From the NCBI GenBank assembly GCA_016787785.1, contig JAEUTO010000011.1, positions 372,001 through 436,000 of the forward strand: DNA of 64,000 nucleotides. Reading direction: 5' to 3'. A program made the translations under genes and the position numbers. Position 1 is the first letter of the stretch. Each line of letters opens with the position of its first letter. Source of the DNA: Bacteroidia bacterium. GTDB lineage: Bacteria > Bacteroidota > Bacteroidia > B-17B0 > Aurantibacillaceae. Below are positions 50,854 through 59,641 of this stretch, one piece after another. The notes under the pieces are model-generated. The model ran no database searches and was not told the origin of the DNA. It was given only the letters and a program-made list of their open reading frames with translations.

Positions 50854-52806
50854 CTGCAACTATCAGTAATCATAGTCAATTACAACGTAAAGCACTTTTT
50901 AGAACAGTGTCTTTTTTCGGTTTTTAAAGCATTAAAGAACATTAATGCTGAGGTAGTTGTTGTGGATAATAACTCCGTAGACGGCTCTATAGCGCTTATA
51001 AAGGACAAATTCCCTCAAGTAAGATTAATCGCCAACACAACCAACACGGGCTTCTCTGTGGCCAATAATCAGGGTATAAAGATCGCCAAAGGCAAATATG
51101 TGCTGTTACTTAACCCCGATACTGTTGTGCAGGAGGATACTTTTGAGAAAACCCTGGCTTTTATGGAAGAACACCCCGATGCGGGCGGACTAGGCATTAA
51201 AATGTTGGATGGTAAGGGTAATTTTTTACCTGAGAGTAAACGCGGACTTCCGACCCCGGCAGTGGCATTTTATAAGATATTTGGACTTGCAAAATTATTT
51301 CCCGGGTCTAAAAAATTTGGTCAGTATCATTTAACATTTTTAGACAAAAATAAAACGCACCAAATAGATATTTTAAGTGGCGCGTTCATGTTAATGCGTA
51401 AAGAAGCTTTAGATAAAGTTGGTTTGCTCGACGAAACTTTTTTTATGTATGGCGAGGATATCGACCTTTCTTATCGTATTACGCAGGGTGGCTATAAAAA
51501 TTATTATTTTGCCGATAGTAGCATTATTCATTACAAAGGCGAGAGCACAAAAAAAAGCTCTGTTAATTATGTGATTGTTTTTTATAAGGCAATGGCAATT
51601 TTTGCGCAAAAACATTTTACACAAAATCACGCGCGCACATTTCGCTTCTTAATTTACTTTGCAATTTATTTACGAGCAGCAGCAGCAATAACAGCGCGCT
51701 TTATTAAACAATGGTTTTTCCCGGCAATTGATTTCGCGCTTATATTATTTGGACTCTATCTATGTAAAAACATTTACGAAACACATTTTAAACTCACCCC
51801 CAATTTTTATTCGCAGGAAACGTTAAATTTTTTCTTTCCAATTTATACGCTGGTGTGGATGTTCTTCGTGTATCTTAGCGGTGGTTATGATGTGCCGCTG
51901 CGCCTTACCAAAGTGGTAAGAGGGGTTTTAGCAGGAACGGCATTTATCTTAATTGTATATTCACTTTTACCGGAATACTACCGTTTTTCGCGGGCGTTAA
52001 TTTTAATTGGTTCGGCTTACACATTAGCAATTTATATAATAACGCGTTTAATTTATCACGCGTTAAAAATTAAAAAATTTAAAATAGGTGGTTACAAAAC
52101 AAACGCACGTATTGCCATTATTGGAAGCGAATTGGAATTTAACCGCGTAAACGATATCCTTAAAAAAACAAACATTAAATCAGAATTCATAGGTTTTATT
52201 AGTAACGAGAACAACGGCATTAAGAACGAAGCCTATATTGGTCACTTCCATCAAATTAATGAAGCAATTGATGTGCACCAATTGAATGAAATTATTTTTT
52301 GTGCCCGCGATATTTCATCACAAGAAATTATTGATAAAATGATAACGCTGGTTACAAAAGGCGTTGAGTTTAAAATTGCGCCACCCGAAAGCCTTTCAAT
52401 TATTGGTAGTAACAGCATTGATACCGCCGGCGATCTGTATGTGATAGACGTGAATAATGTTGGAAGGCCTGAGAACAGACGTAAAAAGAGGTTGCTGGAT
52501 CTTATTGTGAGCGTAACAGCACTGTTGTTCTTTTGGATCTTTATCTGGTTTCAAAAGAATAAACTTAATTTTATTGCAAACGCGTTTAAAGTTTTGGTTG
52601 GAATTTATTCATGGGTGGGTTATGGTAAAAACCCGCGTAAAGATCTGCCCTCTATTCGCCCTTCAGTATTAACCCCCTCAGATATGCATAAAGAGTCTTT
52701 ATCTGAAGACCGTATCAACAAAGCGTTTTTAAACTATTCTAAAGATTATAAGATTGAGAACGACCTTAAGATCATTTTCTCTCAGATAAGTAATTTAGGC
52801 AGATAA
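50854..52806 (+). CDS. GT2 glycosyltransferase fused to a sugar-phosphotransferase remnant
   Basis: A GTG at 50962 is a possible start but would remove the first strand of the glycosyltransferase fold. The frame is open upstream to a stop at 50839, and QLSVIIVNYNVKHFLEQCL, a classic GT2 opening, is encoded just after CTG at 50854; I take this CTG as the start (650 residues). The GT2 domain (about 1-270) shows VVDNNSVDGS, LLLNPDTVV and FMYGEDIDLSYR. Membrane helices (about 285-400) and a Rossmann domain (about 415-540) follow, as in WbaP/PglC-like priming transferases. The ending RKKRLLDLIVSVTAL ... WVGYGKN lacks the KFRSM-type catalytic block. It probably adds a sugar in surface glycan synthesis. 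Confidence 0.75.
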   Translation: MQLSVIIVNYNVKHFLEQCLFSVFKALKNINAEVVVVDNNSVDGSIALIKDKFPQVRLIANTTNTGFSVANNQGIKIAKGKYVLLLNPDTVVQEDTFEKTLAFMEEHPDAGGLGIKMLDGKGNFLPESKRGLPTPAVAFYKIFGLAKLFPGSKKFGQYHLTFLDKNKTHQIDILSGAFMLMRKEALDKVGLLDETFFMYGEDIDLSYRITQGGYKNYYFADSSIIHYKGESTKKSSVNYVIVFYKAMAIFAQKHFTQNHARTFRFLIYFAIYLRAAAAITARFIKQWFFPAIDFALILFGLYLCKNIYETHFKLTPNFYSQETLNFFFPIYTLVWMFFVYLSGGYDVPLRLTKVVRGVLAGTAFILIVYSLLPEYYRFSRALILIGSAYTLAIYIITRLIYHALKIKKFKIGGYKTNARIAIIGSELEFNRVNDILKKTNIKSEFIGFISNENNGIKNEAYIGHFHQINEAIDVHQLNEIIFCARDISSQEIIDKMITLVTKGVEFKIAPPESLSIIGSNSIDTAGDLYVIDVNNVGRPENRRKKRLLDLIVSVTALLFFWIFIWFQKNKLNFIANAFKVLVGIYSWVGYGKNPRKDLPSIRPSVLTPSDMHKESLSEDRINKAFLNYSKDYKIENDLKIIFSQISNLGR

Positions 52807-55514: not shown

Positions 55515-56090
55515 ATGAACTGGGAAACGTTGCTTTGTGTTGGAGATAGCATAACGATTGGTTCAAGATCATATTTTGGCTATCCTGAATATTGCGCTAA
55601 TTTTTTAGCAAAAAAAACAAACAAAAGCTGGAATGTTTTAAACCATGCGGTTGCTGGTTTTACAACAATTGATCTTGCGCGAAGTATTGATAAGAGTTTT
55701 GCAAATCTAAAAGATGCCAAGCCTGATATTGCTACAATTTTAATTGGAACTAATGATCTAAAATCAAACTTGTTACCGGAGATGTTTAAAATCGCATATG
55801 AACAATTGGTTGTAAAAGTTCAATTGATCGTCAGAACAAATAATATTATGTTAATTGAAATTCCAAAACTTACGGATGGAGTTATGTTGCCGTATAATAT
55901 TGAAATGAATAAAACAATAATCGAATACAATAAAATCGTACAAGAGATCGCGAACAAAAACAAATTGATATATGTTCAGATAAATTCAAACGTAAACCAT
56001 TTTTACGATGGGGTTCATTTAAATGAAACAGGAAGTGAATATTTTGGAAGCGAACTTGCAGATAGGATCCTGAAACTAAGAAATGCCTGA
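55515..56090 (+). CDS. SGNH/GDSL-family hydrolase
   Basis: The 191-residue product has the SGNH blocks: CVGDSITIGSRS with nucleophile Ser12, Gly in HAVAGFTTIDL, Asn in LIGTNDLKSN, and Asp/His in FYDGVHLNETGSEYF. No signal peptide is seen, so it should act in the cytosol. Family members are esterases or O-acetyl transferases/hydrolases of sugars, lipids and glycans. It is the first gene of a three-gene operon; its stop codon overlaps the ATG of the epimerase-oxidoreductase gene (8 bases shared), which points to coupled translation. Confidence 0.85.
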   Translation: MNWETLLCVGDSITIGSRSYFGYPEYCANFLAKKTNKSWNVLNHAVAGFTTIDLARSIDKSFANLKDAKPDIATILIGTNDLKSNLLPEMFKIAYEQLVVKVQLIVRTNNIMLIEIPKLTDGVMLPYNIEMNKTIIEYNKIVQEIANKNKLIYVQINSNVNHFYDGVHLNETGSEYFGSELADRILKLRNA

Positions 56091-58461
56091 AGAAAAAAAA
56101 ATACTTATAGTTTTTGGAACAAGGCCGGAAGTAATTAAGCTGGCACCTTTAATTCTGGACTTGAAAAACTCTTCATTAAAAGACAGATTTATTGTTGCTT
56201 CCACATCACAGCATGAAGAATTGCTTGAAGAGCAATTGAACTTCTGGAAAATTAAGCCCGACTATTTTCTTACCCCTAGTCCATTTAAAGGCGATCTAGT
56301 AAGAATGCTGTCCCACACACTATCCGGTCTTCAGGATATTATCGATCAGGTAGGTAAAGTAGAATTTATTGTTGTTCAAGGAGACACTAATACAGCACTT
56401 GCGTGTTCAAACCTTGCTTTTCTAAATAAAATAAAATTAATACATGTTGAAGCGGGCCTGCGCTCTTTTGATCTTGAACATCCGTTTCCAGAAGAGTTTA
56501 ACCGATCAGTAGCGTCAAAAGTGGCTTATTTTCATTTCGCACCAACAGAACTTTCAAAACAAAACCTTTTAAATGAAAAAGTAGATGAAAGTAAAATCAT
56601 GGTTATTGGCAACACGGTTATTGACGCCTTGAATTACGTAAAAAATAGTCAAGAAAAAATTATAAACGGTCAGCAAAAAACAATTTTAATTACAATTCAC
56701 CGAAGAGAAAACATCATCCAAAACTATCTAACGTTAGTCGATATTGTTGGTGAGTTAGCAGATGAACATCCTGACTTTAATTTTATATGGATCACACACC
56801 CTAATGGAATGAAAACTGTTAATGAAAAAAAGTTACCAGCTAAAAACATTAAGATCTATGATCACATGTCTTATAATGATTTTATTAATTTATACGAATC
56901 GGCAAGCTTAGTAATTACAGATTCGGGTGGTGTTTCAGAAGAAGCCATCCATTTAGGATTACCTCTAATCGTTTTCAGGTTAAAAACAGAAAGGGTAGAG
57001 GCCATTGATATTAATTACCCACTCCTAATCTCTATAAAAAAAGACGAGATAAGATCTTTTTTTAAAACTACCATTAGCACAAAAAACATTCTAAAATATT
57101 CTTACGGAGACGGAAGAGCGTCATTAAAAATAAAAAACTGGTTGATCAAAGAAATGGAAGAACGAAGTTATGAAGTAGTAATAGTTGGGGGCGGTCCGGC
57201 AGGAACGGGATTGCTGTTAAAATGTTTAAAGGACGGAATGAACAACAGCTTTATGAAAAAGAGCGTTGCTTTAATTGAAAGATCCGAATGTTTGATCAAG
57301 GGAAATATTACAAAATATAAAGTTAATAGCGATACTTTTTCGGATGTTTTTTTAGAATGTCTCGAAGGTGCAACACACGAGTTAATAAATACAGACGAAC
57401 TAAAAAATGAAATTGAATATATAAGGAATTTTAAGGGCCGATCAATCCCGCTGGAAGACCTCGATAGTTATTATAGTAAATTGGGGATCTTATTAAAAAA
57501 AGGGCTAGAAGCGAACAAACACTGTGATTTTTTTATGAAATCAACAGTTACAAAAATTATCCAACAGGATTCAGGAATTTTTAGGGTATTTATATCAGGG
57601 CACTCTCATCCAATTAAAACCAAGCAATTGATAATTGCTACGGGGGGTATTCCTTTTAATTTTAAAAACAAAGAAGTTTTATTTTCAGAAAAAATAGTGT
57701 TGAATAATTTTCTACATAAATCAATACATTCGGATGAACTGCTACGGAATGGAATGCCAGAAATGTTAAAAGCCGAGTTAACAAAAAAAACCAAAGTCGT
57801 AATTTTAGGAGGTAGTCATAGCGCCTTTTCAGCCGCACATTTATTGCTAAATTCCACAGAAAAAAATAAATATGATATCGGTGATATAAAAATTTGGAGT
57901 AAATCACTTCCAAAAATTTATTTTCCAACGCAAGAAGACGCAATAAAAAGCGGATATACAGATTTTACCGAACAGGATATTTGTCCGGTTACAAAAAAGT
58001 TATACCGACTTGCGGGTTTAAGAATGGATGGACGCGATCTTTACATTAAAATGCTTGGGTTAAACAACTCTGACAAGGAGCAACGTGTAGAATTAAAAAC
58101 GTTTTCGGACCAATACGCTCAAATAGAAAACGATCTAAAAGAAGCAACTCTAATAATTCTGGCATACGGTTATAAATTAAATATGTTCCCATTTTATGAT
58201 AGTGAAAACAAGATTATAAAATTTAAAGGTGAAGATACAAACCACTGGGTAAACAAAAACTGTGCGATGCTAGATGCGCATGGTAAAGTTATTCCTAATT
58301 TATTTGCAACGGGCTTAGCCACTGGTTTTATTCCTTCAGGAAAACTTGGCGGTGAACCAAGTTTTGAAGGACAAACAAACGGCATCTGGTATTATCAAAA
58401 TGCAATTGCAGAAGAGATCATAAGTAATTTACAAAATGAAAATCCTTCAAATATGTCATAA
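56083..58461 (+). CDS. Fusion of UDP-N-acetylglucosamine 2-epimerase and FAD/NAD(P)-type oxidoreductase
   Basis: The 792-residue product joins two complete enzymes. Residues 1-357 are a WecB-type 2-epimerase: IVFGTRPEVIKLAPLI, VQGDTNTALACS, HVEAGLRSFDLEHPFPEEFNR, ITIHRRENI, TDSGGVSEEA, ending in the usual YGDGRASLKI. Residue 358 is Met, and EVVIVGGGPAGTG at once begins an FAD Rossmann fold. A second nucleotide motif VVILGGSHSAFSAAHLLL lies near 575, and a C-terminal ATGLATGFIPSGKLGGEPSF closes the oxidoreductase. The reading frame is continuous with no linker at the junction. The oxidoreductase may modify the epimerised sugar or its product; the reaction is unknown. The GT4 gene overlaps by 26 bases. 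Confidence 0.8.
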   Translation: MPEEKKILIVFGTRPEVIKLAPLILDLKNSSLKDRFIVASTSQHEELLEEQLNFWKIKPDYFLTPSPFKGDLVRMLSHTLSGLQDIIDQVGKVEFIVVQGDTNTALACSNLAFLNKIKLIHVEAGLRSFDLEHPFPEEFNRSVASKVAYFHFAPTELSKQNLLNEKVDESKIMVIGNTVIDALNYVKNSQEKIINGQQKTILITIHRRENIIQNYLTLVDIVGELADEHPDFNFIWITHPNGMKTVNEKKLPAKNIKIYDHMSYNDFINLYESASLVITDSGGVSEEAIHLGLPLIVFRLKTERVEAIDINYPLLISIKKDEIRSFFKTTISTKNILKYSYGDGRASLKIKNWLIKEMEERSYEVVIVGGGPAGTGLLLKCLKDGMNNSFMKKSVALIERSECLIKGNITKYKVNSDTFSDVFLECLEGATHELINTDELKNEIEYIRNFKGRSIPLEDLDSYYSKLGILLKKGLEANKHCDFFMKSTVTKIIQQDSGIFRVFISGHSHPIKTKQLIIATGGIPFNFKNKEVLFSEKIVLNNFLHKSIHSDELLRNGMPEMLKAELTKKTKVVILGGSHSAFSAAHLLLNSTEKNKYDIGDIKIWSKSLPKIYFPTQEDAIKSGYTDFTEQDICPVTKKLYRLAGLRMDGRDLYIKMLGLNNSDKEQRVELKTFSDQYAQIENDLKEATLIILAYGYKLNMFPFYDSENKIIKFKGEDTNHWVNKNCAMLDAHGKVIPNLFATGLATGFIPSGKLGGEPSFEGQTNGIWYYQNAIAEEIISNLQNENPSNMS

Positions 58462-59641
58462 ACCAGCTTATCCGCCTATTGACGGCGCTTCAATTGCCAT
58501 GTATAATTTATACAACGGCTTAAGTAATAACGGGCACCAGGTACATGTTTTAGCAATTAATACTTACAAGCAATATTGTAATATAAAAACAGTACCCCTT
58601 AATTTTATCACTGAATCAAACTATACGCTGGTAGATGTCGATATCAGAGTTAGAGCGATCCCGGCGTTTTTAAACTTATTTACTGATAAGTCTTATAATA
58701 TTGTTCGGTTTGGTTCAGTCGCATTAAGAGACGCTATTGAAAAACTAATTGAAAACAACACCTATGATACAGTGATTCTAGAGTCACTTTATGCCACAGT
58801 GCATATTGATCTGTTGAGGCAAAAAACAAATGCAAAAATTGTTCTCCGCAGTCACAATGCCGAATTTAAGATATGGGAAAACTTATATAACAATGAGAAG
58901 AACACCCTTAAGAAGTGGTATTTAAACATACTTTCAAAAAGATTAAAAAAGTATGAAAAAGAAACTTTAAAAAAAGTAGATCTAATAGCAGCAATAAGCC
59001 GGGATGATAATGTCGTTTTTAAAAGCGAAGGATGTTTAACGCCAATGGAATACACTCCGTTTGGGATAAACTTTAATGACGAAGAATTTAAGGAATATGT
59101 TTCCCCGGAAAAAGAAGATCTGGTATTCTTTCATGTCGGGTCAATGGATTGGATTCCTCACCAGGAAGCTTTTAGGTGGTTTTTAGAAAAAGTGTGGACC
59201 CCACTAAATATAAAATATCCTCGGGCTAAACTACATTTAGCCGGATCAAAAATGCCAGAATGGATTACGCGCGGAAAATTTCCTAACGTAATTGTTACCA
59301 GCGGTTATGTTGAGGGTAAAACATTTATGAATAAAAAATGTATTATGGTTGTACCTTCTTTTTCTGGAAGCGGCATTCGAATAAAAATCGCCGAAGGAAT
59401 GGCAAAAGGCAAAGTTGTGGTTACTACAAAAAACGGAGCCATGGGAATTCCTTGCACTCATAACGAGAATATTTTTATTTCTGATAGCGCTGATGAATGG
59501 ATCTCTATTTTGAGCCGCTGTATGCAAGATCTGGAGTTGGTTAAACAAATTTCAAAAAACGCCAGAGCGTTTTCTAAAAGAGAGTTTGATTATAACTTAG
59601 CGGCAAATAAGTTAATAGAGGCTGTGAAAAACCTTTATTAA
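58436..59641 (+). CDS. GT4-family glycosyltransferase
   Basis: The 401-residue product is a GT-B fold glycosyltransferase: N-terminal domain starting MKILQICHKPAYPPIDGASI, a central DLVFFHVGSMDWIPHQEAFRW, and the nucleotide-sugar-binding C-terminal segment VVPSFSGSGIRIKIAEGMAKGKVVV with the E-x7-E pattern partly kept. It should transfer a sugar, plausibly the UDP-sugar made by the preceding epimerase, to an unknown acceptor. No membrane helices are seen. It starts inside the end of the fusion gene, so the three genes form one translationally coupled unit. It ends 7 bases from a convergent gene. Confidence 0.88.
   Translation: MKILQICHKPAYPPIDGASIAMYNLYNGLSNNGHQVHVLAINTYKQYCNIKTVPLNFITESNYTLVDVDIRVRAIPAFLNLFTDKSYNIVRFGSVALRDAIEKLIENNTYDTVILESLYATVHIDLLRQKTNAKIVLRSHNAEFKIWENLYNNEKNTLKKWYLNILSKRLKKYEKETLKKVDLIAAISRDDNVVFKSEGCLTPMEYTPFGINFNDEEFKEYVSPEKEDLVFFHVGSMDWIPHQEAFRWFLEKVWTPLNIKYPRAKLHLAGSKMPEWITRGKFPNVIVTSGYVEGKTFMNKKCIMVVPSFSGSGIRIKIAEGMAKGKVVVTTKNGAMGIPCTHNENIFISDSADEWISILSRCMQDLELVKQISKNARAFSKREFDYNLAANKLIEAVKNLY

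What the first reader, a model, noticed from the sequence alone, without database searches (positions are those of the whole stretch)
56083..58461. Seamless in-frame fusion of UDP-HexNAc 2-epimerase to a two-Rossmann oxidoreductase
The epimerase ends at its normal C-terminus and the next residue, Met358, is where a free-standing flavoprotein would start. There is no linker, as if one stop codon had been lost between overlapping genes. The flavoprotein half has two dinucleotide motifs (GGGPAG and GGSHSA), like NAD(P)H-dependent monooxygenases and reductases. This pairing is new to me and suggests substrate channelling.
Basis: partly seen in the sequence, partly recalled or inferred. Interest (0 to 1): 0.72.

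Follow-up and report, generated by a model that had tools for sequence, protein, structure and literature searches.

The report
Sugar-nucleotide epimerase fused to flavin oxidoreductase
One bacterial gene encodes a sugar-nucleotide epimerase joined without a linker to an uncharacterised flavin enzyme; the same fusion occurs in other bacteria and the flavin enzyme is elsewhere fused to a different sugar enzyme, so it probably makes an unknown modified sugar for cell-surface glycans.

Summary
The fusion is real and recurrent. Window 56083-58461 is one 792-aa frame: a WecB-type UDP-GlcNAc 2-epimerase (aa 1-357) joined, without linker, to a two-dinucleotide flavoprotein (aa 358-792). Three other Bacteroidota genomes carry the same fusion, a fourth fits but is split between contigs, and in a fifth the two genes are separate and overlap. 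An SGNH hydrolase gene precedes the pair in all six; no orthologue was found in five genomes whose flavoprotein visibly lacks a linked epimerase. In Alphaproteobacteria and an acidobacterium the same flavoprotein family is fused to a DegT aminotransferase, in both domain orders (12 of 13 carriers among 298 Sphingomonadaceae genomes). A glycosyltransferase gene usually follows. So this is a fusion-prone flavoprotein family tied to nucleotide-sugar modification. Its predicted fold is nearest to flavin monooxygenases, N-hydroxylases and YpdA, but it passes none of their sequence tests. Best guess: NAD(P)H/O2-dependent oxygenation, perhaps N-hydroxylation, of a UDP-amino sugar, then glycosyl transfer; substrate and reaction are inferred. 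Met358 is not conserved in the other three fusions; channelling is untested. Three literature searches listed no description. Novelty: new subfamily and architecture within a known superfamily.

The parts
55515..56090 (+). SGNH/GDSL hydrolase, 191 aa; begins MNWETLLCVGDSITIG with no signal peptide apparent by eye; overlaps the fusion start by 8 nt
   Evidence: ORF; PF13472 81 bits; orthologue at E <= 1e-10 in 6 of 12 flavoprotein-bearing genomes, the six with a linked or probably linked epimerase; SGNH blocks conserved in 5 of 5 aligned
56083..57153 (+). Epimerase half of the fusion (aa 1-357), non-hydrolysing UDP-HexNAc 2-epimerase
   Evidence: PF02350 and TIGR00236 above cut-off; solved relatives
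57145..57165 (+). Junction: end of the epimerase C-terminal helix and start of the flavoprotein (IKEMEER), no linker
   Evidence: sequence; junction DNA of four fusions compared; predicted secondary structure
57154..58461 (+). Flavoprotein half (aa 358-792), two-dinucleotide-domain FAD/NAD(P)H oxidoreductase
   Evidence: PF07992; AlphaFold2 pLDDT 83, pTM 0.82; fold matches
57187..57204 (+). FAD-site motif GGGPAG (aa 369-374)
   Evidence: conserved in family alignments
57808..57825 (+). Second dinucleotide motif GGSHSA (aa 576-581)
   Evidence: similar G-[GA]-S-x-[ST]-A motif in the family
57976..57987 (+). Family motif D-[IF]-C-P (aa 632-635)
   Evidence: D275, C277, P278 (flavoprotein numbering) invariant in 10 of 10 aligned members; found in 11 of 12 sequences scanned, the 12th being a 72-aa fragment that lacks the region
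58436..59641 (+). GT4-type glycosyltransferase, 401 aa, start overlaps the fusion end by 26 nt
   Evidence: ORF; PF13692; glycosyltransferase in the same place after the flavoprotein in L033 and L037

Best explanation
The gene encodes a genuine bifunctional enzyme of a small nucleotide-sugar and glycosyltransfer operon (SGNH hydrolase, epimerase-flavoprotein, glycosyltransferase). Shown by sequence: an intact non-hydrolysing UDP-HexNAc 2-epimerase; a flavoprotein with two dinucleotide sites; recurrence of the fusion; and partnership of the same flavoprotein family with DegT aminotransferases elsewhere. Inferred: the epimerase turns UDP-GlcNAc (or a derivative) into the manno form; the flavoprotein, reduced by NAD(P)H, oxidises that same nucleotide sugar, most likely as an O2-dependent monooxygenase at an amino nitrogen (the SGNH enzyme would unmask or trim an acyl group); the neighbouring glycosyltransferase then uses the product. 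The confidence below is for 'the flavoprotein acts on the same nucleotide sugar as its fusion partner'; for N-oxygenation specifically it is about 0.3.
For: Single ORF with both full domains. Same fusion in G239 (803 aa), L029 (788 aa) and L033 (795 aa). Unfused overlapping pair in G066. The epimerases of the four fusions, of the probable fusion in G762 and of G066 form one clade, 97/96 support, apart from 24 other WecB-type proteins. An SGNH orthologue (E <= 1e-10) is in the 6 genomes with a linked or probably linked pair and in 0 of 5 genomes whose flavoprotein visibly lacks a linked epimerase; it is also absent from G757, whose flavoprotein is cut by a contig end. Flavoprotein fused to DegT in Novosphingobium x2, Sphingomonas and, in reverse order, Granulicella; adjacent in a Rhodospirillales MAG. 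Of 298 Sphingomonadaceae genomes 13 have the family (one is the query's own genome, G761): 11 whole fusions, one fused but cut by a contig end, one in two overlapping frames. GT2 gene within 60 nt of the flavoprotein match in 11 of 12 of those regions. Fold: the top Foldseek hits are N-hydroxylases, with YpdA sixth; the top VIA hits are bacterial FMOs and YpdA. A PLP enzyme is fused to or beside the flavoprotein in 8 of 8 non-Bacteroidota loci opened, five of which were found with a DegT-fused query. All 12 genomes examined carry COX1, so O2 use is possible.
Against: No sequence profile assigns the flavoprotein to the N-hydroxylases: PF13434 is not matched by the window protein at E <= 0.1. 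Relatives in G239 (26.5 bits) and L029 (24.3) pass its cut-off of 21.3 over about 100 residues only, and at E <= 0.01 the model rings in 13 of 14 control genomes, over the cut-off in 12. In a single-sequence profile comparison several proteins that look like dihydrolipoamide dehydrogenases or other flavoproteins scored higher (up to 71) than two true N-hydroxylases (49 and 48). Profile searches of solved sequences hit urocanate reductase, thioredoxin reductase and ferredoxin-NADP reductase over short stretches, not N-hydroxylases. Fold matches to N-hydroxylases have TM only about 0.5 and the listed VIA matches 11-18% identity. The Bacteroidota operons seen have no aminotransferase. Two Bacteroidota flavoproteins (L030, and L031 of genome G047) stand without a linked epimerase. 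The two DegT halves scanned score far below the curated cut-offs of the named sugar-aminotransferase models, so their substrates are unproven. The fusion model has only pTM 0.63, so domain packing is unknown.
Confidence: 0.5

Rival explanations
1. The flavoprotein acts on the nucleotide sugar but not as an oxygenase: it oxidises a hydroxyl to a ketone or reduces a double bond or ketone with NAD(P)H, and the ketone is what DegT partners would aminate.
For: DegT enzymes need keto sugars (recalled); fusion with DegT in both orders; weak profile hits to flavocytochrome c and urocanate reductase.
Against: The whole-fold matches are to NAD(P)H-dependent monooxygenases and YpdA; the urocanate reductase hit covers only about 40 residues.
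Confidence: 0.25
2. The two halves are tethered for dosage or localisation only; the flavoprotein acts on something else, such as a lipid carrier, a thiol or a glycosyl acceptor.
For: Flavoproteins without a linked epimerase sit next to GT4-type glycosyltransferases in L030 and L031; distant relatives lie in an NRPS/PKS cluster (Shinella) and in an unidentified biosynthetic cluster (Rahnella, Erwinia) with no epimerase or DegT annotated in the stretch shown; YpdA-like fold matches.
Against: On the simplest count three fusion events with two enzyme types of sugar-nucleotide biosynthesis, and conserved operon order.
Confidence: 0.17
3. The reading frame is fused but cells mainly make two proteins, the flavoprotein starting internally at or near Met358.
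For: Met358 lies at the domain boundary in the window; TTG codons, possible but weak starts, occur at the junctions of L029 and L033.
Against: No ATG stands at the junction of the other three fusions; in the model, helix runs nearly straight into strand.
Confidence: 0.05
4. Assembly or sequencing error that removed a stop codon.
For: None found.
Against: Three other genomes share the fusion at the same junction.
Confidence: 0.01

Closest known systems
Non-hydrolysing UDP-GlcNAc 2-epimerase (WecB/MnaA, TIGR00236, PF02350)
   Same: Full-length domain, score above curated cut-off, active-site blocks conserved
   Different: C-terminus runs straight into a flavoprotein; belongs to a separate clade with the other fused or paired epimerases
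Flavin N-hydroxylating monooxygenases (SidA/IucD/PvdA, DfoA, KtzI; PF13434)
   Same: Two-Rossmann FAD/NAD(P)H fold, best Foldseek matches; similar length; DICPVT aligns with DVSPFT of one N-hydroxylase, L060
   Different: Window protein has no PF13434 match; 11-18% identity in the listed fold alignments; partner enzymes are of sugar-nucleotide type; C-terminal GGExSFxGQTNGxW stretch is conserved in this family
Bacterial FMO-like proteins (4usr, 4a9w) and bacillithiol disulfide reductase YpdA (7a76)
   Same: Highest VIA Z-scores: 22.6 (rmsd 3.8, 319 aligned), 22.0 (3.4, 311) and 21.6 (3.5, 297)
   Different: 325-357 residues against 435; no sequence-level match to the YpdA model
DegT aminotransferase-flavoprotein fusions (two plasmid records, annotated only as DegT family aminotransferase)
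   Same: Same flavoprotein family as one half
   Different: Partner is a PLP aminotransferase, not an epimerase; both domain orders seen

Membership tests
Non-hydrolysing UDP-GlcNAc 2-epimerase | TIGR00236 score over curated cut-off across the domain | tested here: met
   281 bits against 210, aa 6-352
Non-hydrolysing UDP-GlcNAc 2-epimerase | Conserved active-site blocks (list recalled: GTRPExxK, GDT, EAGLR, PEE, HRRE, DSGGxxEE) | tested here: met
   present in 5 of 5 family epimerases aligned (window, L029, L033, G239, G066) and matched in the alignment to a solved epimerase
Non-hydrolysing UDP-GlcNAc 2-epimerase | Interconverts UDP-GlcNAc and UDP-ManNAc | not testable with these tools
   needs an assay
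SidA/IucD/PvdA N-hydroxylating monooxygenases | PF13434 match over cut-off | tested here: not met
   no match for the window protein at E <= 0.1; relatives in G239 and L029 pass it weakly and partially, while at E <= 0.01 it also rings in 13 of 14 control genomes
SidA/IucD/PvdA N-hydroxylating monooxygenases | Two-Rossmann FAD plus NADPH fold | tested here: met
   Foldseek E 2.3e-13 to putrescine N-hydroxylase, TM 0.50; VIA Z about 19; shared with FMO and YpdA, so not specific
SidA/IucD/PvdA N-hydroxylating monooxygenases | Hydroxylates an amine with NADPH and O2 | not testable with these tools
   12 of 12 genomes examined have COX1, which only permits O2 use
Thioredoxin-reductase-type disulfide reductases | CxxC redox motif | tested here: not met
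   no CxxC in the window flavoprotein nor in the 11 relatives scanned, two of them partial
Classical FMO/BVMO | Fingerprint beginning FxGxxxH (recalled) | tested here: not met
   absent from all 12 sequences scanned, two of them partial
YpdA | TIGR04018 over cut-off | tested here: not met
   12.9 bits against cut-off 339.9
SGNH/GDSL hydrolase (upstream gene) | Blocks GDS, G, GxND, DxxH | tested here: met
   PF13472 81 bits against 32.9; GDSIT, GTND, DGVH conserved in 5 of 5

The most novel reading that the evidence does not exclude
A previously undescribed family of two-Rossmann flavin N-oxygenases acts on nucleotide amino sugars. It has fused at least three separate times to the enzyme that makes its substrate (UDP-HexNAc 2-epimerase; DegT aminotransferase in both orders), so that compact gene cassettes equip bacterial surface glycans with N-oxidised sugars (hydroxylamino, oxime or nitro).
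Probability: 0.25. Interest if true: 0.85.

Novelty: new variant of a known kind. Interest (0 to 1): 0.6.

Why it matters
Repeated fusion to enzymes of nucleotide-sugar biosynthesis is strong evidence of a functional link for a flavoprotein family to which no curated model in the searches made here gave a specific name. If the inferred reaction holds, it adds a redox step, and perhaps a class of N-oxidised sugars, to bacterial polysaccharide chemistry, and a single 90-kDa protein makes this directly assayable.

Tried and rejected
Assembly error: rejected, since three other genomes carry the fusion at the same junction.

Internal start at Met358 as a conserved feature: rejected, residue not conserved; TTG codons at two other junctions leave a weak internal start possible.

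Filing the flavoprotein under N-hydroxylases by sequence: rejected. PF13434 is not matched by the window protein and is nonspecific at the level its relatives reach. A single-sequence hhalign control gave higher scores to several proteins that look like dihydrolipoamide dehydrogenases or other flavoproteins, so the hhalign result (probability 95% to two N-hydroxylases) shows superfamily kinship only. A PHROG hit named ribonucleotide reductase large subunit (26.9 bits) was set aside: it covers only the N-terminal nucleotide-binding half.

Other long frames holding an epimerase (G044, 609 and 606 aa): looked at. The extra N-terminal part reads by eye as high-GC read-through; no domain search was run on it. 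I do not count them as fusions.

Single origin of the epimerase fusion: not settled. The fused epimerases (with the probable one of G762) are one side of a branch with support 75/35 only, and in the flavoprotein tree two stand-alone proteins lie among the fused ones. L033 is a long branch in both trees.

The single-sequence scan of genome contigs found no relative; the alignment scan found nine loci, one of them the genome already seen as G047 and two of them partial. Pattern-based scans miss relatives, so this count is a floor. The phylum draw found only the window's own genome among 395.

In one search one query (L035) was the wrong strand and gave no family; one search repeated it on the right one. 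Only some neighbour genes were scanned against Pfam; other neighbour names are record annotations or by eye.

Literature: four searches of the held library. One search was only for the name DiatB (a fold match); the five papers it listed of 11 do not concern an enzyme. Searches listed nothing on this fusion or this flavoprotein; I saw listings with abstract starts (20 of 271, 1 of 1 and 12 of 9,456 papers), and the 12 listed do not contain the epimerase term at all. I opened no paper.

The viral fold library and the metagenome collection were not used.
Full report
WHAT IS THERE. Window 56083-58461 (+) is one open frame of 792 aa. Its first 357 residues are a non-hydrolysing UDP-GlcNAc 2-epimerase (TIGR00236, 281 bits against a cut-off of 210; PF02350) and aa 358-792 are a two-dinucleotide flavoprotein that Pfam recognises only loosely (PF07992, 40 bits). 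The epimerase part aligns to residue 371 of 375 of a solved epimerase.

NEIGHBOURS. Upstream, overlapping by 8 nt, is a 191-aa SGNH hydrolase with no signal peptide apparent by eye (PF13472). Downstream, overlapping by 26 nt, is a GT4-type glycosyltransferase. The other genes nearby (a DsbD-like protein, an inositol-phosphatase-like protein, a GT2 protein; the first two named by eye) add nothing clear to the pathway.

THE FUSION RECURS. The window's genome shares its class with G047, whose contig has the same length as a record titled Flavobacteriales, so I take the window to be Bacteroidota. In G239 (same class, another family) the ORF is 803 aa, with Epimerase_2 and Pyr_redox_2 in one frame and the SGNH gene just upstream. 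The MAG loci L029 (Flavobacteriales, 788 aa) and L033 (Bacteroidia, 795 aa) have it too, each with the SGNH gene upstream, and L033 also has a downstream GT. In G762/L037 the SGNH gene and much of the epimerase end at one contig edge and the flavoprotein's end starts another contig, followed by two GTs and a FkbM methyltransferase: compatible with a fusion, not shown. In G066 the same three genes are separate: SGNH, epimerase (395 aa), flavoprotein (444 aa), the last two overlapping by 26 nt in different frames. Two flavoproteins, L030 and L031 (the latter the genome also seen as G047/L004), stand next to GT4-type glycosyltransferases with no linked epimerase. L032 is cut by a contig end, so its linkage is unknown.

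HOW RARE. 4 of 395 genomes drawn from the class carry the flavoprotein, the window's own included, and 1 of 395 drawn from the phylum, the window's own. None of the 36 same-genus genomes has a listed match to the flavoprotein half. The pattern scan of genome contigs found nine loci. So it is an accessory trait.

CO-OCCURRENCE. Among the 12 flavoprotein-bearing genomes examined, an SGNH orthologue (E <= 1e-10) is found in the six with a linked or probably linked epimerase (G000, G066, G239, G755, G758, G762). It is found in none of the five whose flavoprotein visibly has no linked epimerase (G047, G756, G759, G760, G761), nor in G757, where the contig ends inside the flavoprotein. The epimerases of the four fusions, of G762 and of G066 form one clade (97/96) apart from 24 other WecB-type proteins. 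Without G066 the support is weak (75/35). The flavoprotein tree places the two stand-alone proteins among the fused ones, so loss of the epimerase half, or more than one fusion, is needed; the data do not decide.

A SECOND PARTNER. The same flavoprotein family is fused to a DegT/DnrJ/EryC1 aminotransferase in two Novosphingobium genomes (DegT first), in a Sphingomonas plasmid (DegT first) and in a Granulicella plasmid (flavoprotein first, beside Wzz-like, export and sugar-transferase genes). In a Rhodospirillales MAG the flavoprotein and DegT genes are separate neighbours beside a flippase and an acyltransferase. Of 298 genomes of the Novosphingobium family searched, 13 have the flavoprotein, one being the Novosphingobium genome G761 itself: 11 whole DegT-flavoprotein frames, one fused but cut by a contig end, and one with the two parts in overlapping frames. 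A GT2 gene lies within 60 nt of the flavoprotein match in 11 of 12 of these regions. More distant relatives on plasmids lie next to PLP enzymes: Shinella (annotated SidA/IucD/PvdA family monooxygenase, in an NRPS/PKS cluster), Rahnella and Erwinia (unidentified biosynthetic cluster) (two further records, H4 and H7, were not opened). Two domain orders with DegT plus the epimerase fusion mean, on the simplest count, at least three fusion events. The two DegT halves scanned score far below the cut-offs of the named sugar-aminotransferase models, so their exact substrates are open.

WHAT THE FLAVOPROTEIN IS. The model of the flavoprotein (nine sequences) has pLDDT 83 and pTM 0.82. Foldseek ranks putrescine N-hydroxylase, SidA, DfoA, KtzI and YpdA highest, with TM about 0.5. 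VIA ranks bacterial FMO-like proteins (4usr Z 22.6, rmsd 3.8, 319 aligned; 4a9w Z 22.0) and YpdA (7a76 Z 21.6), with N-hydroxylases near 19. By sequence it belongs to none of them: no PF13434 match in the window protein, no CxxC and no FMO fingerprint in the 12 family sequences scanned, TIGR04018 far below cut-off. Profile searches of solved sequences found only short matches, to urocanate reductase, thioredoxin and ferredoxin-NADP reductases and others. A control showed that sequence profiles cannot tell N-hydroxylases from other two-dinucleotide flavoproteins here. The family has its own conserved features, including D-[IF]-C-P and a C-terminal GGExSFxGQTNGxW-like stretch.

HOW IT MOST LIKELY WORKS. 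The recurring partners (UDP-HexNAc 2-epimerase, DegT aminotransferase) are families that act on activated sugars (family knowledge), and a glycosyltransferase gene usually follows. The simplest reading is that the flavoprotein oxidises the nucleotide sugar that its partner produces or uses, and the glycosyltransferase consumes the product. Oxygenation by NAD(P)H and O2 fits the fold and the oxidase gene found in 12 of 12 genomes. N-hydroxylation fits the PLP neighbours (8 of 8 non-Bacteroidota loci opened) and would need a free amine, which the SGNH hydrolase might supply in Bacteroidota. These last steps are inference. The dehydrogenase/reductase rival remains open.

LITERATURE. Searches of the held open-access library listed no description of either fusion; I saw listings and abstract starts only.

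Searches were added to confirm motif absences and four domain assignments that had rested on inspection or annotation.

Noticed in passing
L077:8830-11532; L076:7678-10170; L081-L092: DegT aminotransferase-flavoprotein fusions; the two plasmid-borne ones are annotated only as 'DegT/DnrJ/EryC1/StrS family aminotransferase', and the domain order is reversed in Granulicella.
   Followed up: yes
L079:8587-11713 and L080:8383-11509: In Rahnella and Erwinia plasmids a distant flavoprotein relative sits before a nucleotidyltransferase-aminotransferase (NTP_transf + Aminotran_1_2) and a CDP-alcohol phosphatidyltransferase, in a biosynthetic cluster that I did not identify.
   Followed up: partly
window 50962-52806: GT2 glycosyltransferase frame that continues for some 400 residues beyond the main GT2 match (membrane-like segments, then a possible nucleotide-binding region, by eye); the Pfam matches seen were all to glycosyltransferase families.
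   Followed up: no
L107:1203-2807, L108:1179-2999 (G044): Epimerase frames of about 600 aa whose N-terminal extension looks like high-GC read-through; a caution that a long open frame alone is not a fusion.
   Followed up: partly
L035:2559-4634, L036:1700-3718: A similar FAD protein with a Tat-like N-terminus (by eye) lies next to the DegT-flavoprotein gene in both Novosphingobium loci.
   Followed up: no
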